A DNA stretch of 8,672 nt from Streptosporangiaceae bacterium. Lineage in GTDB: Bacteria; Actinomycetota; Actinomycetes; Streptosporangiales; Streptosporangiaceae. The notes under the pieces were generated by a model. That model was not told the origin of the DNA and did not search any database. It saw only the letters and a list, made by a program, of their open reading frames with translations. The position numbers and the translations under genes were made by a program. This document shows positions 1 to 8,603 of this stretch, piece by piece; positions within the stretch are counted from its first letter, which is position 1, and the number at the start of each line of letters is the position of its first letter. The DNA lies in assembly GCA_030041195.1 (NCBI GenBank), contig JASHOI010000764.1:1-8672 (forward strand), in the 5' to 3' direction.

Positions 1-1950
1 GGTGTTGACCTGGAGAAACTCCCCGGACATGGTCTCGCGCTTGAACAGGTTGGACACCTGCGGCTCGATGCACTCGTAGCATCCGACGATCGAGGCGATG
101 GTCGCGGTCGGGGCGATGGCGATCAGCAGCGAGTTCCGCAGCCCGGTTTGCCTGATCCGCTTGCGCAGCGCCTTCCACCGGGCCGCCTGCGTGCCCGGCA
201 CGCCCCACAGGTCCGGCTGCAGCTGGCCGGCGGCGGCGCGGGTCTGGCCGAACGCCGGGTGCGCGCCGTACTCCTTGGCCAGGTCGGCGGAGGCCTCGAG
301 CGCGGTCAGGCAGATCTCCTCGGCGATCCGCGCGGACAGCTCCCGCGCGTCGGGCGAGTCGAACGGCAGCCGCAGCGCGAAGAACACATCCTGCAGGCCC
401 ATCACGCCCAGCCCGACCGGGCGCCAGCGCGGGTTGGACGCGGCCGCCTGCTTGCTGGGGTAGAAGGTCAGGTCGATGACCCGGTCCAGGAACGGGACGG
501 CGGTCCGCACCGTGTCGCGCAGTTTGTCCCAGTCGACCCGCGGCGCGCCGCCAGGCCCGGCGCTCAGGTGGCGGGCCAGATTGATTGAGCCGAGGTTGCA
601 CACGGCCGTCTCCGCGTCCGTTGTCACCTCGGTGATCTCAGTGCACAGATTTGACAGATGCACCACGGTTCCTGGCTGGCCTGTCTGGTTGCACTTGGCG
701 TTGCAAGCGTCCTTGAACGTGATCCAGCCGTTGCCGGTCTGCGCCAGCGTGCGCATCATCTTGGCGTAAAGATCGCGCGCCTGCACCTGGCGGACGTACC
801 GGCCTTCGGCCTCGGCGGCCCGGTAGGCCGCGTCGAACGCCTCGCCCCACAGATCGGGCAGCTCGGGCACCTGGTCCGGGTCGATCAGCGACCACATCTG
901 GCCGGCCTCGACCCGGCGCATGAACTCGTCGGGGAGCCAGTTGGCGAGGTTCAGGTTGTGGGTCCGCCGGGCGTCCTCACCGGTGTTGTCGCGCAATTCG
1001 AGGAACTCCTCGATGTCGGGGTGCCAGGGCTCCAGGTAGACGCAGGCGGCGCCCTTGCGGCGCCCGCCCTGGTTCACGGCCGCGACCGACGCGTCCAGCG
1101 TCTTCAGGAACGGGACGATGCCGTTGGATTTGCCGTTCGTGCCGCGGATCAGCGCGCCGCGGGACCGCACCCGCGACCAGGAGATCCCGATCCCGCCGGA
1201 GAACTTGCTCAGCTGCGCGACCTGCGCGTACCGGGCGTAGATCGAGTCCAGGTCGTCCCGCGGGGAGTCGACAAGGAAGCAGGACGACATCTGCGGGTGG
1301 CTGGTGCCGGAGTTGAACAGCGTCGGGGAACTGGGCAGGTACGCCAGTGAGGACATCAGCCGGTAGAACCTGATCGCCTCGGCCGGTGTCTGCGACAGCC
1401 CGCAGGCCACCCGCAGCAGGAAGTACTGCGGGGTCTCGATCACCATCCGGGTGGACGGGTGCCGCAGCAGGTACCGGTCGTAGACCGTCTTGATGCCGAA
1501 GTATTCAAAGTCGCCATCGGCGTCGGCGTCGACGGCGTCATCCAGCTTGCGCGCGTTGTCCTTGACGAACCGGGCCGTCGCGTCGCCGATCAGCCCTTCG
1601 GCCTGGCCCAGCGCGACCGACTGGCTGAACGAGGCGATGCCCTGGCCGCGCACTTCCTTGCCGATGTAGCCGGCCAGCAGCCTGCCCGCCAGCCGCGAGT
1701 ACTGCGGCTCCTCCCCGGTCATCTCGGCCGCCGTCTGGATCGACAGCCGGTCCAGCTCCGCGGTGGTCGCCCCGTCGTACAGGCCGCTGATCGTCTTGGT
1801 CGCCACCCGCAGCGGATCGACCTCGTCCAGCCCGCCCGCGCACCGTTCCACGGCGCGGACAATCTTGTTTACGTCGACCGGCTCGGCGTCCCCGTTCCGC
1901 TTGCGAACCTGCATACGCGCCTGCGCGGGCCTGGCCTCGGTGACCGTCAT
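1..1950 (-). CDS. nrdA: Class I ribonucleoside-diphosphate reductase, large (alpha) subunit, 3'-truncated by the window edge
   Basis: Catalytic subunit that reduces ribonucleoside diphosphates to deoxyribonucleotides in the cytosol, using a radical supplied by a beta subunit (NrdB, not in the window). The first 650 residues are present without a stop; family members are usually about 750-950 residues, so the C-terminal redox cysteines are missing here. An ATP-cone allosteric domain occupies about residues 12-100 (VRKRNGDAEPVDVNKI). The three active-site cysteines are visible: C224 in MSSCFL, C436 in SNLCTEI with N434 and E438, and C451 in AVCNLGSINL. Near the cut end, GCYECIEPQVSNLFKRETMSGEF matches the class I pattern IEPxxSNxxxRxxxSGEF, which argues against B12-dependent class II NrdJ. 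The ATG at 1950 was chosen because GAGGAG lies 7 nt upstream and the ATP cone follows directly. A cobalamin riboswitch and an NrdR-box pair lie upstream, as in Streptomyces nrdABS. No frameshift was seen. Confidence 0.95.
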   Translation of the reverse strand, partial: MTVTEARPAQARMQVRKRNGDAEPVDVNKIVRAVERCAGGLDEVDPLRVATKTISGLYDGATTAELDRLSIQTAAEMTGEEPQYSRLAGRLLAGYIGKEVRGQGIASFSQSVALGQAEGLIGDATARFVKDNARKLDDAVDADADGDFEYFGIKTVYDRYLLRHPSTRMVIETPQYFLLRVACGLSQTPAEAIRFYRLMSSLAYLPSSPTLFNSGTSHPQMSSCFLVDSPRDDLDSIYARYAQVAQLSKFSGGIGISWSRVRSRGALIRGTNGKSNGIVPFLKTLDASVAAVNQGGRRKGAACVYLEPWHPDIEEFLELRDNTGEDARRTHNLNLANWLPDEFMRRVEAGQMWSLIDPDQVPELPDLWGEAFDAAYRAAEAEGRYVRQVQARDLYAKMMRTLAQTGNGWITFKDACNAKCNQTGQPGTVVHLSNLCTEITEVTTDAETAVCNLGSINLARHLSAGPGGAPRVDWDKLRDTVRTAVPFLDRVIDLTFYPSKQAAASNPRWRPVGLGVMGLQDVFFALRLPFDSPDARELSARIAEEICLTALEASADLAKEYGAHPAFGQTRAAAGQLQPDLWGVPGTQAARWKALRKRIRQTGLRNSLLIAIAPTATIASIVGCYECIEPQVSNLFKRETMSGEFLQVNT

Positions 1951-2066: not shown

Positions 2067-2091
2067 CGCCGCGCGCCCCTCGCGCGCGGCG
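2067..2091 (-). terminator. GC hairpin after the cobalamin aptamer (candidate expression platform)
   Basis: A perfect 10-bp inverted repeat (CGCCGCGCGC, 5-nt loop, GCGCGCGGCG) starts within 2 nt of the 3' strand of riboswitch helix P1. It has no U-tract, as is usual for actinobacterial terminators. Its position suggests that ligand binding permits or stabilises this stem and stops transcription before nrdA, 117 nt downstream. The mechanism is inferred; the inverted repeat is seen directly. Confidence 0.6.
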
Positions 2092-2092
2092 C

Positions 2093-2302
2093 GCTGGCAG
2101 GTCTTCGGACTCGCGGGCAGAGCGCGCACGCGCGCTTCCTACTGACCGTCGCTTCCCAGGCCGCAAGCCCAGTGCTGTCGGTGCCGCGCATCTTCGCGTG
2201 GCCCCGGACGGCTGTCGTTCCCGCTCACCGCTGCGGGGCAGTCCCGGAATTACACCGGGTTCCCTCTTGCCTCCGCGAACCTGGAGGGCCCGCGGAACCA
2301 GC
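2093..2302 (-). promoter_or_regulatory. Adenosylcobalamin (B12) riboswitch in the nrdA leader
   Basis: Read on the minus strand, this holds the conserved cobalamin-aptamer elements in the right order: GAGGGAACCCGGTG (2253-2266), GCCCCGCAGCGGTGAGCGGG (2220-2239), and the B12 box AGTCCGAAGACCTGCC (2096-2111). GCTGG at the 5' end (2298-2302) can pair with CCAGC at the 3' end (2093-2097) to close helix P1. The leader lies entirely between the nrdA promoter and the nrdA start. In Streptomyces the same arrangement lets coenzyme B12 shut off the oxygen-dependent class I reductase when the B12-dependent class II enzyme can work. By that parallel, this genome should also carry nrdJ elsewhere. Confidence 0.93.
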
Positions 2303-2310
2303 TGCGGGCA

Positions 2311-2357
2311 ACACCATATGTGGGTGACCCCGCAAGACCAAGCACCACATGTCGTGC
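2311..2357 (-). promoter_or_regulatory. nrdA promoter with a pair of NrdR boxes
   Basis: Two 16-bp sites resemble the NrdR consensus acaCWATATaTWGTgt: one starting at 2311 (ACACCATATGTGGGTG) and one starting at 2342 (GCACCACATGTCGTGC). Each matches about 10 of 16 positions. Their starts are 31 bp apart, three helical turns, which is the spacing expected for NrdR pairs. On the minus strand a -10-like TATGGT (2313-2318) lies inside the proximal box, with a weak -35 TTGGTC (2336-2341) at 17 nt. Transcription would begin just before the riboswitch. NrdR, a dATP/ATP-sensing repressor, is not encoded in the window. Confidence 0.55.
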
Positions 2358-2447: not shown

Positions 2448-2909
2448 CTACTGGCAGGAGGCGCACAGGCCGGTCACCGCGAACCGGTGCGGGGCGATGG
2501 CGAACCCGTACCGTGCGGCAACGACCTGGGCGAGGTCGTCGAACAGCTCGTCGGGCACTTCGGTCATCGCGCCGCACCGCTCGCAGACGATGTGGCCGTG
2601 GGCCGCGGAGGCGAGGTGATAGGCGGCCGGCCCGCCGCCCAGGTAGGTGCGGTCAACTATGCCGAGCCGGACGAGTTCGTCGAGGTTGCGGTAGATCGTG
2701 CTGATGTTGACGTCCGGCGCTTGGGCCTGCACAGCGGCGGCCAGTTCCTCGGCGCTGCGGTGGCTGCCCTCGCTGAACAGCACCTGTAGCAGGAGCCGAC
2801 GCGCCGGTGTGGCCCGCCCGCCTGCCTCGCGCATCCGGGCCAGAACCTGTTCGACGCCATCGCGGTCAGCGACCGCCGCCGACCGGCCGTTAGCCCGGGA
2901 CTGCTTCAT
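2448..2909 (-). CDS. Fur-family metal-dependent repressor, probably Nur-type
   Basis: A 153-residue protein of normal Fur-family length. Residues about 18-90 form the winged-helix DNA-binding domain; the recognition-helix stretch DVNISTIYRNLDEL (66-79) is highly typical. The C-terminal metal/dimerisation domain has H98, H104 and H106 (YHLASAAHGHIVCERC), plus two CxxC pairs, C109/C112 and C149/C152, expected to hold structural zinc. The pattern VNIST-YR-L...LG-G...YHLA...H-H-VC--C resembles Streptomyces Nur, but Zur shares much of it, so protein sequence alone does not fix the metal. The Nur assignment rests mainly on the four TTGCAA-N5-TTGCAA-type sites nearby and on linkage to sodF, a known Nur target. 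The ATG at 2909 has only a weak AGG ahead of it; a -10-like TATCCT lies 6 nt upstream, so the mRNA may be leaderless. It lies 68 bp downstream of the 86-residue gene and may also be read from the sodF promoter. Confidence 0.9.
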   Translation of the reverse strand: MKQSRANGRSAAVADRDGVEQVLARMREAGGRATPARRLLLQVLFSEGSHRSAEELAAAVQAQAPDVNISTIYRNLDELVRLGIVDRTYLGGGPAAYHLASAAHGHIVCERCGAMTEVPDELFDDLAQVVAARYGFAIAPHRFAVTGLCASCQ

Positions 2910-2915
2910 GGCCTA

Positions 2916-2974
2916 AGGATAGGCGGTTCGCCACGCATACGGACGACGCATACGCTGCTGCAACTCGCTCGCAC
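2916..2974 (-). promoter_or_regulatory. Fur-family gene promoter region with a weak Nur-like site
   Basis: The gap between the 86-residue gene and the regulator contains TATCCT (2916-2921), a possible -10 placed 6 nt before the ATG. It also has two exact copies of ACGCATACG (2933-2941 and 2946-2954, period 13), and CTGCAA-CTCGC-TCGCAC (2958-2974), a degraded version of the 6-5-6 operator found at the other promoters (9 of 12 half-site positions). No good -35 was found. Autoregulation is an inference. Confidence 0.3.
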
Positions 2975-2977
2975 AAG

Positions 2978-3238
2978 CTACAGATTCATGACCTGGGCCG
3001 CGATCTGCAGGCTGATGTCGGCAGCCACGTCATCGACGGAGCGGTTCTCGTAGCGGGCGAGCAGCGCAACCGCGAGGTCCGCGAGGAACATGAACCCGGC
3101 GGCCTTCGTCCTGTCATCGAGACCGCACAGCAAGGCGTCCGCGCTGGCCAGGTCCCCTCGGTGCCGGGCAGCGATGATCCCGGCCCCGGCCTGCGCCGCC
3201 TCGGCCGTGGCGAAGAACGATGCCGCGGCGTCGCTCAT
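2978..3238 (-). CDS. Small protein of unknown function, translationally coupled to sodF
   Basis: An 86-residue protein that I do not recognise. It is rich in alanine and predicted largely helical, has no convincing signal peptide, and has one moderately hydrophobic stretch (AAGFMFLADLAVALLARY, 46-63) with a central aspartate, so probably not a membrane segment. There is a single cysteine (C38). The start is the ATG at 3238-3236, which shares its A with the sodF stop codon (TGATG). No ribosome-binding site is visible inside the end of sodF, so translation probably depends on reinitiation after sodF. A longer reading from 3322 would overlap sodF heavily and is unlikely. The coupling suggests a role tied to SOD or to the same metal response; it would share the Nur-like control of sodF. 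Confidence 0.7.
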   Translation of the reverse strand: MSDAAASFFATAEAAQAGAGIIAARHRGDLASADALLCGLDDRTKAAGFMFLADLAVALLARYENRSVDDVAADISLQIAAQVMNL

Positions 3239-3864
3239 CAGCCCGCTGGCGAGGCCTGCGAACCAGCAGCCTTCGCGGCCTGATACCGACGGGCGACGTC
3301 GGGCCAGTTGACCACGCTCCACAGCCGGTCGACGTAGTCCGGGCGAACGTTCTTGTACTGCAGGTAGTAGGCGTGCTCCCAGGCGTCGAAAACCAGCACC
3401 GGCGTGGACGCGATGCCGACATTGCCGTGGTGGTCATAGAGCTGCTCGATGATCAGCCGGCCCGACACCGGCTCATAGCCCAGCACGCCCCAGCCCGAGC
3501 CCTGAACCCCGGTCGTGGCCGTCGTCAGCCGCTTGCTGAACGCCTCGAATGACCCGAAGTACTCATTGATCGCGTCGGCGAGCTCTCCGTCCGGCCGGTC
3601 GCCACCGTCAGGTGAGAGGTTCTTCCAAAAGATCGAGTGCAGTATGTGCCCGGAAAGGTTGAACGCGAGAGTCTTCTCCAGGCCCACCGTCGTCGTCGGG
3701 CTGGCCGACTCCCCGGCCTCGGCGAGCTGCTCGAGGGTGTCGTTGGCGCCCTTGACGTAGGCAGCGTGGTGCTTGTCATGGTGCAGTTCCATGATCTGGC
3801 CGATCAACGCCGGCTCAAGCGCGCTGTAGTCATAAGGAAGGTCGGGGAGGGTGTACACGGCCAT
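3238..3864 (-). CDS. sodF: Iron/manganese-type superoxide dismutase, SodF-like
   Basis: Cytoplasmic enzyme converting superoxide to oxygen and hydrogen peroxide; 208 residues, normal for the family. The alpha-hairpin domain covers about 1-85 and the alpha/beta domain about 90-200. The metal ligands are H28 (ELHHDKHH), H76 (GHILHSIFW), D160 and H164 ([11 protein letters not shown]); Y36 is the gateway tyrosine. H145 in YDHHGN sits where mycobacterial and Streptomyces iron enzymes have His and manganese enzymes usually have Gln, so iron is the likelier metal. The segments [16 protein letters not shown] and YEPVSGRLI closely resemble Streptomyces SodF. ATG 3864 is supported by AAGGAG 7 nt upstream. 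A TATAGT -10 overlapped by a Nur-type site lies about 115 bp upstream. In Streptomyces, Ni-loaded Nur represses sodF so that nickel SOD replaces it; the same logic is expected here. No nickel SOD gene is in the window. Confidence 0.93.
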
Positions 3865-3905: not shown

Positions 3906-3971
3906 GTCACCCCGCGGGCGGGCTCGCGCCGCCGAGGTTGCGAGGAACTACCAGCTGCTTACAAGTACCAG

Positions 3972-3993
3972 TTGCAATATGGTCGCAACTATA
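3972..3993 (-). promoter_or_regulatory. sodF promoter with Nur-type operator (site A)
   Basis: TTGCAA-TATGG-TCGCAA at 3972-3988 matches 11 of 12 half-site positions of the Streptomyces Nur box tTGCaa-N5-ttGCAA. On the minus strand a TATAGT -10 (3988-3993) directly abuts and overlaps it by one base, so the site covers the transcription start region; a bound repressor would block RNA polymerase. No consensus -35 is visible. On the minus strand it differs from site B (plus strand) at only one of 17 positions. Confidence 0.75.
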
Positions 3994-4016
3994 CAGTCAG
4001 CCTGGCCGCGGGGGCA

Positions 4017-4047
4017 GGCCCGGCCGTCCATTAGCGATGGCCGGGCC
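4017..4047 (-). terminator. Hairpin terminator after the MucR-like gene
   Basis: GGCCCGGCC (4017-4025) and GGCCGGGCC (4039-4047) form a perfect 9-bp stem, extendable by about 3 further pairs into the 13-nt loop. It begins 13 nt after the stop of the zinc-finger gene and ends 24 nt before the sodF -10, so it would insulate sodF from readthrough. There is no U-tract. Confidence 0.6.
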
Positions 4048-4060
4048 GCGCGCCGGGCGG

Positions 4061-4621
4061 TCACCGCGCCCGCGCCTCGCGCAGAAGCCAGCGCGCCCAG
4101 TCGCTGCCCTGCCAGCCCGCGGCGGCGGTGACGATGATCGTCCAGCCTTCTGACCTGCCCGGCCGCAGGGCGAGGCACTCTTCGTCGGCGCCGCTCCGCG
4201 GCGCAATGCCGTGGCCGCCTGCACGCTGCTTCATGTCTCGGCTCTCGGCCGGGCCGCCGGGCCGGCCGGCCGGGCCGGTGCCAGCAGCGGTGGCGGCCTT
4301 TGGATCACCTGGATCACCTGGATCACCGGCCCGGCCCCCGCGCCGGGCCGGGCGCGCTGCGACCAGCGCGGTGGCCCGCGGCAGCCGCATGGCTTCCCGG
4401 TAGGTGCCGGCGGTGTGGCCGTGCACCCGCACATGGACGCCAAGCGAGACGAACCACTCACCGCAAAGGTGGCAGCACAGCCGGCCGGTCCCCTCCTCCG
4501 CGACCAGCCGGCCAGGAGGCGCGTGCAGGCCGGTTCCGTCCGGCAAGGACCACAGGTGCCCGTGCCGCCCCGGAGCCCCGGGCCGCGGCCACGGGCCGAC
4601 GGTGCCTGGCACGGCTGTCAC
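4061..4621 (-). CDS. MucR/Ros-like zinc-finger protein
   Basis: A 186-residue protein. The recognisable part is residues about 22-90, holding CHLCGEWFVSLGVHVRVHGH: C50-x2-C53-x9-H63-x3-H67, followed by TAGTYREAMRLPRATALVA. This matches the Ros/MucR-type finger seen in many actinobacterial putative regulators (C-x2-CG-x-F-x2-LG-x-H...HG-TA-YR). It may bind DNA, but the target is unknown. A proline/glycine linker with (GDP)3 follows at about 99-107, then a C-terminal segment with EGWTIIVTAAAGWQGSDWARWLL (158-180) that I cannot assign. The GTG at 4621 was chosen because GGAGG lies 5 nt upstream; the reading frame stays open to 4798, but a longer start would place the operator at 4663-4679 inside the gene. 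It stands alone on its transcript, divergent from the methyltransferase. Confidence 0.72.
   Translation of the reverse strand: MTAVPGTVGPWPRPGAPGRHGHLWSLPDGTGLHAPPGRLVAEEGTGRLCCHLCGEWFVSLGVHVRVHGHTAGTYREAMRLPRATALVAARPARRGGRAGDPGDPGDPKAATAAGTGPAGRPGGPAESRDMKQRAGGHGIAPRSGADEECLALRPGRSEGWTIIVTAAAGWQGSDWARWLLREARAR
4302..4327. repeat. Three tandem GGATCACCT units inside the MucR-like gene
   Basis: Three 9-bp copies of GGATCACCT (the last ends CC plus a diverging base) encode Gly-Asp-Pro three times on the minus strand. They sit in the linker between the zinc finger and the C-terminal segment. Being in frame, changes in copy number would alter linker length without a frameshift. Confidence 0.8.
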
Positions 4622-4662
4622 ACCCACCTCCGGAGCACGGGCGGCATGAGGGCCGCCCCTTA

Positions 4663-4693
4663 TTGCGACCACATTGCAACTACGTCGATTATG
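4663..4693 (-). promoter_or_regulatory. Promoter of the MucR-like gene with Nur-type operator (site B)
   Basis: TTGCGA-CCACA-TTGCAA at 4663-4679 is an 11-of-12 match to the Nur half-sites. On the minus strand a -10-like CATAAT (4688-4693) sits 8 bp upstream of the site, so the site would lie just past the transcription start, 42 bp before the GTG. No -35 consensus was found. On the plus strand the site is preceded by CTTA exactly as site C is, so it might also influence rightward transcription. Confidence 0.65.
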
Positions 4694-4829
4694 CAGTGAC
4701 ATCCGGCCCGCGGCTACAGGCAGGCCACGGGCGGGACGCGCGGCGACGCCGGGGCCAGTGCTACGCCAGCGGCCACAGCGCCGGGCCCCCGCCATCATCG
4801 GGAATGGCCGACACGACGCCCGGCGCTTA

Positions 4830-4869
4830 TTGCGACTTCTTTGCAGTTAGCGCTCGTGCACGTTATTTT
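4830..4869 (+). promoter_or_regulatory. Methyltransferase-CDF promoter with Nur-type operator (site C)
   Basis: TTGCGA-CTTCT-TTGCAG at 4830-4846 matches 10 of 12 Nur half-site positions. Its right half TTGCAG (4841-4846) can serve as -35, with a 17-nt spacer to TATTTT (4864-4869) and 7 nt to the ATG at 4877. That geometry predicts a leaderless mRNA and a repressor site covering the -35. Confidence 0.65.
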
Positions 4870-4876
4870 GAAGCGC

Positions 4877-5677
4877 ATGACGACCCGCGCAGAACGGTCA
4901 TCGGATAACCGCGAACCGGCGGCGGACGAAACGGGAGATGTCTCCGGCCAGATCCGTGCCTTCTGGGACGAGGACGCGACGGTCTATGACAGGTCGCCGT
5001 CGCACTATCCGAAGCGGCCGCAGGAGCAGGCCGCGTGGGCCGCGGCCCTGCGACGGCTGCTGCCGCCGCCACCGGCGACCATCCTGGATGCCGGCGCTGG
5101 CACCGGGTTCTTGTCGCTGCTGCTGGCTGGCCAGGGCTACGACGTCACCGCCGTGGATCTGTCCCCGGGTATGCTCGGCCGGCTGCAGGCAAAGGCCGCT
5201 GAGCGAGGGCTGAGCATTCGGGCCGTCGAGGCGGACGCACTGGCCCCGCCCCCCGGCAACTTCGACGCGGTGGTGGAGCGCCACTTGCTGTGGACGTTGC
5301 CCGATCCTGGAGCAGCGCTGGCCGCGTGGCACCAAGTGGCACCCCAGGGCCGCCTGGTGCTGATCGAGGGCACCTGGGGCGCCGCAGACGCGGTGAGCTC
5401 ACAGCGCTGGCGGGCGCAGGCACGTCGCCTGGTCGAGCGCGTCCGGGGCGCAGAACCCAGCCATCACGACCACTACAGCGACCGGATCCAGCGTGCGCTG
5501 CCGCACGGCCGCGGCCTGAGCACCGCCGACGCCGTCGCCCTGGTGCAAGCAAGCCCGTGGGGGCAGGCCCGCCTGGAGCGGCTGCGGGACGTCGAATGGG
5601 CGATCCTCGACGGGCGCGGGCTCCTGGACGAACTGCTCGGCACCCACCCCCGGTGGGCCGTGGTGGCCGGCCGCTAG
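4877..5677 (+). CDS. Class I SAM-dependent methyltransferase, substrate unknown
   Basis: A 266-residue soluble protein with a Rossmann methyltransferase core at about residues 30-170. FWDEDATVYDRSPSHYP (29-45) is the usual N-terminal entry motif. Motif I is ILDAGAGTGF (69-78), the ribose-binding acidic residue is D94 in AVDLSP, motif II-like EADAL covers 118-122, and FDAVVERHLLWTLPDP (129-144) is the post-I/motif III region. The C-terminal third carries a histidine-rich SHHDHY (195-200), which could bind metal or substrate. The start is ATG 4877: frames open upstream exist, but the operator and -10 lie immediately before this ATG. The CDF gene follows after 38 bp on the same strand and is probably co-transcribed. 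Nothing in the sequence fixes the substrate; placement under a Nur-type site suggests methylation of a small molecule or metallophore, or another job in metal starvation. Confidence 0.85.
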   Translation: MTTRAERSSDNREPAADETGDVSGQIRAFWDEDATVYDRSPSHYPKRPQEQAAWAAALRRLLPPPPATILDAGAGTGFLSLLLAGQGYDVTAVDLSPGMLGRLQAKAAERGLSIRAVEADALAPPPGNFDAVVERHLLWTLPDPGAALAAWHQVAPQGRLVLIEGTWGAADAVSSQRWRAQARRLVERVRGAEPSHHDHYSDRIQRALPHGRGLSTADAVALVQASPWGQARLERLRDVEWAILDGRGLLDELLGTHPRWAVVAGR

Positions 5678-5715
5678 AGCTTCCCAGGCCGGGCCGGCGC
5701 GGCCATGCTGGCTGG

Positions 5716-6642
5716 ATGCACAAGATCTCAGGACAGCGCGACCCGGCCGCGGCGTTCCCGCTCCCGGCCCGCCGTGACGATGCCAGCGAACGGCGGCAGG
5801 CCAATCGCGCGGTCGCGGTCAGCGCCGCCGGGCTCGCCGCCACCGGCATCACCGAGCTGCTGATCGCGGTGCTGACCGGATCGGTGGGCCTGCTCGGCGA
5901 CGCCATTCACAACCTGTCGGACGTGTCCACCAGCGCGGTGGTCTTCCTCGGCTTCCGGCTCTCGCGCCGCGGCGCGACCGAGCGCTACCCCTACGGCCTG
6001 GACCGGGCCGAGGACCTCGCCGGGATCGGTATCGCGGTTGTCATCTGGGCCAGCGCGGGGTTCGCCGGGTATGAGAGCGTCCGCAAGCTCCTCGACCACG
6101 GGGCCACCGCGCACGTCGGGATCGGCATCGCCGGTGCCGTGCTCGGCATCGCCGGCAACCTGGCCGTGGCCCGCTACAAGCTGGCCACCGGCAAGCGGAT
6201 CCGGTCGGCGACACTGGTCGCTGACGCCCGGCATTCCTGGCTGGACGCCCTGTCCTCGGCCGGCGCTCTGGCTGGGCTGATCGCCGTCGCTTTCGGCCAG
6301 CGGTGGGGCGACCCGGTCGCCGGCATCGCGGTGACCGCGCTGATATGCCATGTCGGGTACGACGTCAGCACCGACGTCGTACGCCGCCTGGCCGACGGCG
6401 TCGACCCGCAGGTCATCGCCGCGGCCGAGCGGGCAGCCGGGGACCTGCCCGGCATCGTGCACGCCCACGCCCGGGCCCGCTGGACCGGCCGCCGGCTGCA
6501 CGTTGAGATCGAAGCATGGGTCGACCCCGGGCTGACCGTCCAAGGGTCCGACGCGCTCGGCCGCGCCGCGGCGGCCGCCATCAGGGACCAGATCCCCGAC
6601 GTGGACAGCTTCACCTGGGCAACGCGCGGCGCACCAGCCTGA
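5716..6642 (+). CDS. Cation diffusion facilitator (CDF) family transporter
   Basis: A 308-residue inner-membrane transporter that normally exchanges a divalent metal for protons. Six membrane segments are expected at about 35-55, 58-80, 102-120, 131-152, 178-194 and 198-215. The transport site is made of two H-x3-D pairs, H65/D69 in GDAIHNLSDVS (TM2) and H173/D177 in ADARHSWLDALSS (TM5). This HD-HD site is common in zinc/cobalt/nickel-type CDFs but does not determine the metal. YPYGLDRAED (91-100) is the family's HPYG-RAE signature. Residues about 215-308 form the cytoplasmic ferredoxin-like domain with RLHVEIEAWVDP. There is no histidine-rich loop. ATG 5716 has no clear ribosome-binding site; the frame is open upstream into the methyltransferase gene but without family-like sequence. 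It would share the methyltransferase promoter (site C). Repression by a nickel-loaded regulator would be odd for a nickel exporter. Confidence 0.92.
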   Translation: MHKISGQRDPAAAFPLPARRDDASERRQANRAVAVSAAGLAATGITELLIAVLTGSVGLLGDAIHNLSDVSTSAVVFLGFRLSRRGATERYPYGLDRAEDLAGIGIAVVIWASAGFAGYESVRKLLDHGATAHVGIGIAGAVLGIAGNLAVARYKLATGKRIRSATLVADARHSWLDALSSAGALAGLIAVAFGQRWGDPVAGIAVTALICHVGYDVSTDVVRRLADGVDPQVIAAAERAAGDLPGIVHAHARARWTGRRLHVEIEAWVDPGLTVQGSDALGRAAAAAIRDQIPDVDSFTWATRGAPA

Positions 6643-6663
6643 CTGCCCCCAGCATGGAGCTTT

Positions 6664-6704
6664 TCGCAAATAGATTGCATTAGCGTGAGGAGCGCGCTTA
6701 GCCT
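6664..6704 (+). promoter_or_regulatory. ABC transporter promoter with Nur-type operator (site D)
   Basis: TCGCAA-ATAGA-TTGCAT at 6664-6680 matches 10 of 12 Nur half-site positions. The right half TTGCAT (6675-6680) could be the -35, with an 18-nt spacer to TAGCCT (6699-6704) and then 6 nt to the GTG at 6711. This repeats the geometry at site C and again predicts a leaderless mRNA with the repressor site over the -35. The -10 is weak. Confidence 0.6.
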
Positions 6705-6710
6705 GCGGCT

Positions 6711-8603
6711 GTGTCGGAGGCGAGTACGGCGGCCGGGCTGACCCCGGCTACGGGGTCGCGGCATGCGCGGGCGTTTGACCGGCGGTTGCTGGCCATGGCG
6801 GCACAGGAGCGGGGGCCGCTCGCGGTGTCGGTTGCGCTCGGCCTCGTCGTCGCCGCCACCCGGGTCGGCCAGGGCGTCACGCTGGCCTACGGCCTGGGCA
6901 GCATCCTGTCGACCGGCCGGTGGAGCGGCGCGCTGCCGTGGGTTGGCGCCGCGGTGGGCCTGGTCCTGGTTCGTGCCGCCGCGACCGTGGTGCAGGGCGC
7001 CGCGATGGCCGGGGCGTCGGTGCGGATCACCACGCGGCTGCGCGTGCGCCTGGTGTTGACGATCCTTGGGCTCGGGCCGGCCTGGGTGGGCCGGGAACGT
7101 TCCGGTGAGCTGGAAGCGGTCCTGGTGGATGGGGTGGAGCGGCTGGATGCGTACTTCCGGCTGTTCCTGGCGAAGGTCATCGCGGCGTCGGTGTCCGCTC
7201 TGGCGATCGTGGTTACGGTCATCGTCATCGACCCGCCCACCGGGGCGTGTGTCGCGGTCTTCGCCGCGGCGGTGATGTTCATCCCGTCGGGCGAGTACCG
7301 GGTGCTCGGCCCGCGGATGCGGTTCTGGTCGGACAGCTACCGGCCGTTGTCGGCTGAGTTCGTCGACAACCTGCAGGGCATGACCACGCTGAAGATGTTC
7401 GGCGTGGCGGGAGAGCGCGGCCAGGAACTCGCGGCCCGCTCCGCCCGCGTCAGGGATGCGGCCATCCGGCTGATCTCGGTATCGGGCCTGTTCACCGGGA
7501 TCATGGCGTTCGCCGCCGCGGCCGGGGCCGCCGCGGGGCTGGCGGTCGGCGGGTTCCGGCTCGCGGCCGGGGACCTGACCACCCAGCAGCTGCTGCTGAT
7601 CCTGCTGCTGGCCGCGGAGTGCTTCCGGCCCGCGCGGGAGATCCACGACGCGATGCACTCGGCTGTGTGGGGCATGTCGAAGGTCGAGCGCGCCTTCGAG
7701 ATCTTGCAGGTGACCCCGCCGGAGTCAGACGGCGCCCCCAGGCAGCGGGCGGCCACGGCGCCGACTGTCTCATTCGAGCAGGTCAGCTTCGGCTACCGGC
7801 CGGGCCGGATGGTCCTGGACGAGGTCAGCTTCACCGTCGGCGCGGGCGAGAGCCTGGCCATCGTCGGTTCGTCGGGCGCGGGCAAGACGACGATCGCTTC
7901 GCTGCTGCTGCGTTTCTTCGAACCGCAGGCTGGCCGGATCCGCGTTGACGGCGCCGATATCGCTGCGCTGCACCCGGATGAGGCCCGGCGGCTCATCGCG
8001 GTCGTCCCGCAGGACACCTTTCTTTTCCACGCTTCGATCCGCGACAACCTGACCATCGCCTGCCCCGGCGCGGGCGACGACCAGATGCGGGCGGCCCTCG
8101 CCGCGGCGGGCGCCGCCGGCTTCGTCGATGCCCTGCCGGACGGACTCGCGACGGTCGTTGGCGAACGCGGCCTGCGGCTGTCGGGCGGGCAGCGGCAGCG
8201 CATCGCCATCGCCCGCGCGCTGCTGAAGGATGCGCCGATCCTCATCCTCGACGAGGCCACCTCGAACGTCGACGTAGCAGCCGAGTCCTCGATCCTGGCG
8301 GCACTGGAGCCGCTGCGCCGCGGTCGCACCACGCTGCTGATCGCGCACCGGCTGTCCACCGTCCGCGACGCCGACCAGATCCTGGTGCTCGACGGCGGGC
8401 GCATCGTGGAGCGCGGCACGCATGAGGAGCTGTATGCGCTCGGCGGCCGCTATTGGGATCTCTACACGCGCCAGCACGGTCTGGAAGCGAATCTGTTCCT
8501 GGCGCCGGGTGAAGGCGACACCGTCGAAGAGAATGGCGCGAACAAAGGCGAACCCAAGGAAGCCGCGGCGATCACCCAGGCGATGCGCTTGATCCGCGGC
8601 TAG
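6711..8603 (+). CDS. ABC exporter half-transporter (fused membrane and ATPase domains), CydD-like
   Basis: A 630-residue protein: membrane domain at about 30-310 with six predicted segments, then an ATPase domain at about 350-590. All ATPase motifs are intact: Walker A GSSGAGKTT (386-394), Q-loop Q434, signature LSGGQ (490-494), Walker B LILDEA (511-516) and H546. The stretch FVDNLQGMTTLKMFG (217-231), followed by a conserved FRPAREIHDAMHSAVWG (305-321), resembles CydD-type half-transporters more than lipid or drug exporters. A charged tail of about 40 residues (591-630) follows the ATPase. An in-frame TAG at 6699 makes GTG 6711 the first possible start, and no ribosome-binding site precedes it; ATG 6795 is a less likely alternative. 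Such proteins work as dimers, often with a second half-transporter from the next gene; none is within the 69 bp left. Substrate unknown. Confidence 0.88.
   Translation: MSEASTAAGLTPATGSRHARAFDRRLLAMAAQERGPLAVSVALGLVVAATRVGQGVTLAYGLGSILSTGRWSGALPWVGAAVGLVLVRAAATVVQGAAMAGASVRITTRLRVRLVLTILGLGPAWVGRERSGELEAVLVDGVERLDAYFRLFLAKVIAASVSALAIVVTVIVIDPPTGACVAVFAAAVMFIPSGEYRVLGPRMRFWSDSYRPLSAEFVDNLQGMTTLKMFGVAGERGQELAARSARVRDAAIRLISVSGLFTGIMAFAAAAGAAAGLAVGGFRLAAGDLTTQQLLLILLLAAECFRPAREIHDAMHSAVWGMSKVERAFEILQVTPPESDGAPRQRAATAPTVSFEQVSFGYRPGRMVLDEVSFTVGAGESLAIVGSSGAGKTTIASLLLRFFEPQAGRIRVDGADIAALHPDEARRLIAVVPQDTFLFHASIRDNLTIACPGAGDDQMRAALAAAGAAGFVDALPDGLATVVGERGLRLSGGQRQRIAIARALLKDAPILILDEATSNVDVAAESSILAALEPLRRGRTTLLIAHRLSTVRDADQILVLDGGRIVERGTHEELYALGGRYWDLYTRQHGLEANLFLAPGEGDTVEENGANKGEPKEAAAITQAMRLIRG

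What the first reader, a model, noticed from the sequence alone, without database searches (positions are those of the whole stretch)
3972..6680. Four near-identical Nur-type operators mark every transcription unit of the right half
Sites at 3972-3988, 4663-4679, 4830-4846 and 6664-6680 all fit TTGCRA-N5-TYGCAR with exact 6-5-6 spacing, lie 30-120 bp before start codons, and overlap or adjoin -10/-35 elements. The first two differ at one base of 17 when aligned. Outside these promoters I saw only a degraded copy (2958). The form equals the Streptomyces Nur box, a Fur-family regulator is encoded in the window, and sodF is a known Nur target. Together this points to a compact nickel-responsive regulon of five or six genes.
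Basis: partly seen in the sequence, partly recalled or inferred. Interest (0 to 1): 0.78.

Follow-up and report, generated by a model that had tools for sequence, protein, structure and literature searches.

The report
Nickel-type operators around variant Nur gene
A soil actinobacterium carries a small set of genes behind near-identical switch sites of the kind used by the nickel sensor Nur, next to a gene for an unusual Nur relative that lacks one of Nur's two nickel-binding sites, which makes it a natural test of what that site is for.

Summary
The boxes are real and, as a group, not chance. A matrix built only from other genomes ranks five window sites first: 3972, 4830, 4663, 6664, 2958. 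Corrections: 6664 misses the stated pattern by two bases, and the 'degraded' 2958 site lies 48 nt before the Fur-family gene and is probably its operator. A box precedes sodF in 28 of the 30 relative loci examined. Orthologues of the window's Fur protein lie near a NicT nickel/cobalt transporter in 50 of 80 loci; 30 of 47 divergent pairs have a box before fur, against 3 of 697 control pieces. This supports a nickel (or cobalt) regulon. The regulator is not canonical Nur: it falls in a sister clade in which the window's group never keeps all three Ni-site histidines (0 of 7 proteins, 0 of 120 listed homologues), against 28 of 28 canonical Nur and 71 of 73 other sister-clade proteins. Seven of nine genomes with the variant also encode canonical Nur, so either may bind. 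CDF has no box in 7 relatives. Metal, binding and repression are inferred. Known operator, unusual regulator: new variant of a known kind.

The parts
3972..3988 (-). Nur-type operator of sodF, TTGCGACCATATTGCAA on the - strand, 107 nt before the sodF start
   Evidence: box before sodF in 28 of 30 relative loci
4663..4679 (-). Nur-type operator of the zinc-finger ORF, 41 nt before its assumed GTG start
   Evidence: the 61% orthologue in L045 has a two-mismatch box 41 nt before its assumed start
4830..4846 (+). Nur-type operator of the methyltransferase; right half TTGCAG (4841-4846) is the suggested -35, TATTTT (4864-4869) the suggested -10, start codon 7 nt later (leaderless)
   Evidence: same layout in L003. 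Promoter reading is inference; generic scan found none
6664..6680 (+). Weaker operator of the ABC transporter (two mismatches); same 30-nt distance to the start codon as at 4830; suggested -10 TAGCCT at 6699-6704
   Evidence: (0.005 expected per window)
2958..2974 (-). Degenerate operator GTGCGAGCGAGTTGCAG between the small ORF and fur, 48 nt before fur; probable autoregulatory site
   Evidence: (0.06 expected per window); boxes before fur orthologues
2448..2909 (-). Fur-family regulator of a clade sister to Nur, without the Ni-site histidines ('variant Nur')
2978..3241 (-). 87-aa ORF overlapping the sodF stop
   Evidence: no Pfam match
3238..3864 (-). sodF, Fe/Mn superoxide dismutase
   Evidence: PF00081, PF02777
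4061..4621 (-). Ros/MucR-like zinc-finger ORF, assumed GTG start after GGAGG
   Evidence: PF05443, E 0.0016, 18.9 bits, below the 25.4 cut-off; 61% orthologue in L045
4877..5677 (+). SAM-dependent methyltransferase; relatives lie near NicT in G001, G152 and G190 (3 of 9)
5716..6642 (+). CDF cation efflux protein, 38 nt after the methyltransferase, presumably the same operon
   Evidence: no box in 7 relatives
6711..8603 (+). ABC transporter with fused permease and ATPase, nearest models CydD and MsbA
   Evidence: 76% orthologue in G003; 47% relative after sodF and the small ORF in G131

Best explanation
The five boxes are operators of one small nickel (or cobalt) starvation regulon. A Nur-family repressor loaded with metal sits on the 17-bp box, over the promoter, and holds down sodF with the small ORF, the zinc-finger ORF, methyltransferase-CDF, the ABC transporter and the fur gene. 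When the metal is scarce the repressor leaves, and the Fe-SOD can stand in for Ni-SOD. The likeliest repressor is the window's own Fur-family protein, of a lineage sister to Streptomyces Nur that lost histidines of the second nickel site and keeps H33, H88 and H90 of the first. Shown: the boxes, their clustering, their conservation before sodF and at fur/NicT promoters, the clade, the residue loss. Inferred: binding, metal, repression, promoter elements, operon structure and which of two Nur-type proteins acts.
For: A matrix from other genomes picks the five sites. Box of at most 1 mismatch before sodF in 28 of 30 loci: 34 boxes in 6.6 kb upstream, 5 in about 101 kb elsewhere. Before fur orthologues: 16 in 23.7 kb against 7 in 1.2 Mb elsewhere, four of these 7 lying before NicT, methyltransferase or sodF. 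NicT near the orthologue in 50 of 80 loci, 47 divergent; box of at most 2 mismatches before fur in 30 of 47, against 2 of 30 loci classed without NicT (one of the two has a cut NicT), 0 of 3 codirectional, 3 of 697 control pieces. NicT within 2 kb of the window-type gene in 8 of 9 family genomes, the ninth contig being cut at the gene. sodF next to the gene in G002, G003, G131, G152. No box of at most 1 mismatch in 21 canonical-nur loci; one 2-mismatch site 1.1 kb away. NiSOD in 23 of 28 genomes.
Against: No NicT, nik or sodN in the window; own genome not held. 7 of 9 genomes with the variant have canonical Nur, which could own the boxes; sodF boxes are common in relatives where only canonical Nur was found. 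Ni-site histidines lost. A CDF exporter freed at starvation is odd and its 7 relatives have no box. Genome-wide counts near control. No box before sodF in L180 and L202, before the methyltransferase in 6 of 9 loci (in L133 the NicT promoter is off the contig), nor before sodN in 10 loci. 17 of 47 divergent loci lack a box.
Confidence: 0.64

Rival explanations
1. A canonical Nur encoded elsewhere in the genome reads these boxes in response to nickel; the window's Fur-family protein reads other sites or another signal and is only a neighbour.
For: Canonical Nur in 7 of 9 genomes with the variant; sodF boxes are conserved in relatives lacking the variant; canonical Nur keeps the full Ni-site in 28 of 28.
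Against: Boxes sit at the variant's own promoter and at its NicT partner, canonical nur loci have none within them at 1 mismatch (0 of 21); G004 and G006 have the variant and no canonical Nur in the sequence held.
Confidence: 0.25
2. Both proteins read the same box, the variant tuned to cobalt (or another metal), the canonical one to nickel.
For: NicT-type carriers can move Co as well as Ni (recalled); loss of H70 in 120 of 120 listed homologues; cobalamin riboswitch beside fur and CbiB near the G131 locus.
Against: No direct evidence of metal; B12 links are few (window and G131), and the RNR gene is not near the orthologue in any of 80 loci.
Confidence: 0.25
3. An ordinary Fe, Zn or Mn sensor (Fur, Zur or PerR type) with a similar operator.
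For: Fur-domain hit; closest named PDB sequence by score is a Fur protein; NCBIfam best hits are Fur and PerR models, all below cut-off.
Against: Tree joins it to Nur (98/91); NicT linkage; box is the printed Nur form.
Confidence: 0.1
4. Chance resemblance of unrelated sequences.
For: Genome-wide counts of exact and one-mismatch matches are close to control; 2958 and 6664 are weak.
Against: Matrix expectations of 0, 0, 0, 0.005, 0.06 per window and conservation of position in relatives.
Confidence: 0.02

Closest known systems
Nur of Streptomyces coelicolor (PDB 3EYY) and its box tTGCaa-N5-ttGCAA
   Same: Fur-domain protein joined with it in one supported clade; same box form (passage in PMC3919588); sodF a target
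   Different: Sister lineage; R, Y, R where Nur has H70, H72, H126; relatives pair it with NicT, whereas the review passage names nikABCDE for Nur; box at its own promoter
NicT (HoxN/HupN/NixA) nickel/cobalt transporter loci
   Same: This transporter type is the usual neighbour of the regulator lineage
   Different: No NicT in the window; methyltransferase-CDF, ABC and zinc-finger genes carry the boxes there
SrnR/SrnQ control of sodF in Streptomyces griseus
   Same: Nickel-dependent repression of sodF (seen only as a cited title in PMC4531530)
   Different: Another regulator; not tested here

Membership tests
Fur superfamily | FUR domain above the Pfam cut-off | tested here: met
   PF01475 85.3 bits, cut-off 23.1
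Fur superfamily | Two Cys pairs of the structural zinc site (role recalled) | tested here: met
   C109, C112, C149, C152 invariant in 27 of 27 aligned proteins
Nur (canonical) | Groups within the S. coelicolor Nur clade | tested here: not met
   Sister clade: joint clade 98/91, Nur clade 96/88, sister clade 99/99; 130 columns, bootstrap not settled
Nur (canonical) | Ni-site histidines H70, H72, H126 (numbers recalled; that the site has three His is in a passage read) | tested here: not met
   R, Y, R in the window; all three kept by 0 of 120 listed homologues (H70 by 0, H72 by 25, H126 by 17) and by 28 of 28 canonical Nur
Nur (canonical) | M-site histidines H33, H88, H90 (numbers recalled) | tested here: met
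   H50, H104, H106 invariant in 27 of 27. The fourth, H86, is A, E or S in the 28 canonical Nur examined, so it does not discriminate
Nur (canonical) | Nickel-dependent DNA binding | not testable with these tools
   needs purified protein
Nur regulon | Nur-type box at sodF | tested here: met
   3972 exact; 28 of 30 relative loci
Nur regulon | sodF 3' RNA complementary to the sodN leader | tested here: inconclusive
   Relatives G002 and G003 only: longest antisense match 11 and 9 nt, shuffle maxima 13 and 12; the window's sodN is not held
Nur regulon | Nickel transporter under a box | tested here: inconclusive
   In relatives yes; none in the window, own genome not held

The most novel reading that the evidence does not exclude
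A whole lineage of Nur-type regulators has dropped the second nickel site while keeping the Nur box, the NicT partner and sodF. Either that site is dispensable for nickel control, or the lineage has moved to another metal such as cobalt and shares one box with a canonical Nur in the same cell.
Probability: 0.4. Interest if true: 0.62.

Novelty: new variant of a known kind. Interest (0 to 1): 0.45.

Why it matters
Whether the second metal site of Nur is physiological is open: a review passage says it may be a crystallisation artefact (PMC7055735). A natural lineage that lost those histidines but kept operator, transporter partner and sodF lets that be tested without designing mutants. It also ties a methyltransferase, a zinc-finger protein, a small protein and an ABC transporter of unknown role to nickel/cobalt supply, and suggests one box shared by two Nur-type regulators.

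Tried and rejected
A single-protein scan of genome contigs found no relative; the alignment scan then gave 103 relatives, the best 80 of which were kept. A regulon was not called from genome-wide matches: with one mismatch, 44 places against 34 in the control; of the 16 places held as loci (L105-L120), five precede NicT, methyltransferase or sodF. Box near sodN: best 3-5 mismatches in 10 loci, rejected. s-SodF model: no support in two genomes. CDF as a conserved target: 0 of 7, downgraded. Sigma-70 scan negative. ABC search at 1e-170 found 1 of 200 genomes, but only 6 candidates per genome were scored; upstream of that gene lie two 2-mismatch sites, 11124 and 11158 in L045, noted as weak. The sodF count uses the 30 best loci; 106 of 200 genomes had a match and the rest, including the 55-64% group, was not examined. 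Some of the 30 are close kin (L183 and L189 have the same box). In one search the column for H88 read G in all 120 homologues; I take it for a one-residue gap shift, as the H-G-H pair is invariant, and dropped that count. Structure prediction was not run. Literature: listings and abstract starts (no paper); passages of PMC3919588, PMC7055735, PMC4531530. No Nur lineage without the Ni-site appeared in these; subscription journals are mostly missing.
Full report
Observation. The window holds a class I RNR large-subunit gene (cut, -; TIGR02506), a cobalamin riboswitch (2079-2317, -), a Fur-family gene (2448-2909, -), an 87-aa ORF (2978-3241, -), an Fe/Mn SOD (3238-3864, -), a zinc-finger ORF (4061-4621, -), a methyltransferase (4877-5677, +), a CDF (5716-6642, +) and an ABC transporter (6711-8603, +). 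Three boxes fit the stated pattern exactly, one with two mismatches. A matrix from 33 distinct boxes of other genomes makes the four plus 2958 the five best of the window. On the fur strand 2958 reads GTGCGAGCGAGTTGCAG, 48 nt before fur.

The box is a Nur-type operator. Nur's printed consensus is tTGCaa-N5-ttGCAA (PMC3919588, passage). Of 200 genomes drawn from the family of G001, 106 had a close SOD. In the 30 best loci, 28 have a box of at most one mismatch within 220 nt upstream; L180 (G003) and L202 do not. That is 34 boxes in 6.6 kb upstream and 5 in about 101 kb elsewhere.

The regulator's lineage is tied to nickel/cobalt uptake. Eighty loci with relatives of 48-69% identity were kept out of 103. 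A NicT-type transporter (PF03824; NicT model NF052500, one protein above and one just under the cut-off) lies near the gene in 50 of 80, 47 divergent, 3 codirectional. A box of at most two mismatches lies in the 300 nt before fur in 30 of 47 divergent loci, 2 of 30 others, 0 of 3 codirectional, 3 of 697 control pieces. Exact boxes occur in 3 of 20 genomes, all beside the fur/NicT pair; the reversed-pattern control hits 3 of 20 as well. In seven of eight NicT promoters shown, TTAGCGT or TTACCGT follows the box at nearly fixed distance, so that the left half-site could be the -35; G004 differs. In the methyltransferase promoters of window and L003 and the window's ABC promoter the right half-site would be the -35, and the start codon follows the box by 30-32 nt. 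These elements are my reading; a generic scan found none.

Which regulator. A tree of 72 proteins joins canonical Nur (S. coelicolor, Nonomuraea, and genes of G001, G002, G003, G005) and the window's lineage as sister clades; it has few columns and its bootstrap had not settled. The Ni-site triad is complete in 28 of 28 canonical Nur, in 71 of 73 sister-clade proteins outside the window's group (exceptions L048, L070), in 0 of 7 proteins of the window's group (loci L001, L002, L003, L018, L025, L045) and in 0 of the 120 listed of 553 homologues. H70 is gone in all 120; 25 keep H72 and 17 keep H126. Residue numbers are recalled. The variant occurs in 9 of 200 family genomes, set apart by a wide E-value gap (8e-45 to 3e-29). 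Seven of the nine encode canonical Nur; in G004 and G006 none was found in the sequence held.

Members of the regulon. sodF: strong. NicT: strong in relatives, absent from the window. fur: moderate. Methyltransferase: own box in G001; next to NicT in G152 and, with a box before NicT, in G190; in L138 two 2-mismatch sites; no box in six of nine loci. Zinc finger: in G003 a 61% orthologue with a two-mismatch box 41 nt before its assumed start, as in the window; in L195 an exact box at 555 precedes a 47% match at 596. ABC: 76% orthologue in G003 with two weak sites upstream; in G131 two ABC genes follow sodF and the small ORF on one strand. CDF: by position only; 0 of 7 relatives have a box.

Mechanism. 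Most likely a metal-loaded repressor covers the promoter, and metal scarcity frees the genes, with Fe-SOD standing in for Ni-SOD. NiSOD is encoded in 23 of 28 related genomes tested. Metal, binding and direction of control are inferred from Nur and were not tested.

Verdict. The operator is of a known kind. The regulator beside it is a variant that lost a metal site otherwise conserved in its kin.

Noticed in passing
window 1-1950 (-) and 2079-2317 (-): Cobalamin riboswitch before a class I RNR gene, close to sodF: possibly iron-dependent back-ups for cobalt- and nickel-dependent enzymes side by side. The RNR matched none of the 80 loci.
   Followed up: partly
window 2978-3241 (-): 87-aa ORF overlapping the sodF stop, found after sodF in G002 (73%), G131 (65%) and L193 (43%), without family match.
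   Followed up: partly
L219 (G131) 2466-11790: ABC-ABC-small ORF-SOD on one strand, then fur and divergent NicT, a protein with weak BtuF matches and CbiB.
   Followed up: partly
L045 5178-9104: Two variant regulators in one locus, one near sodF, one beside NicT.
   Followed up: partly
window 3938-3954: Weak box-like site TTGCGAGGAACTACCAG in the sodF leader; 0.24 expected by chance.
   Followed up: no
window 4301-4327: Three exact copies of TGGATCACC inside the zinc-finger ORF.
   Followed up: no
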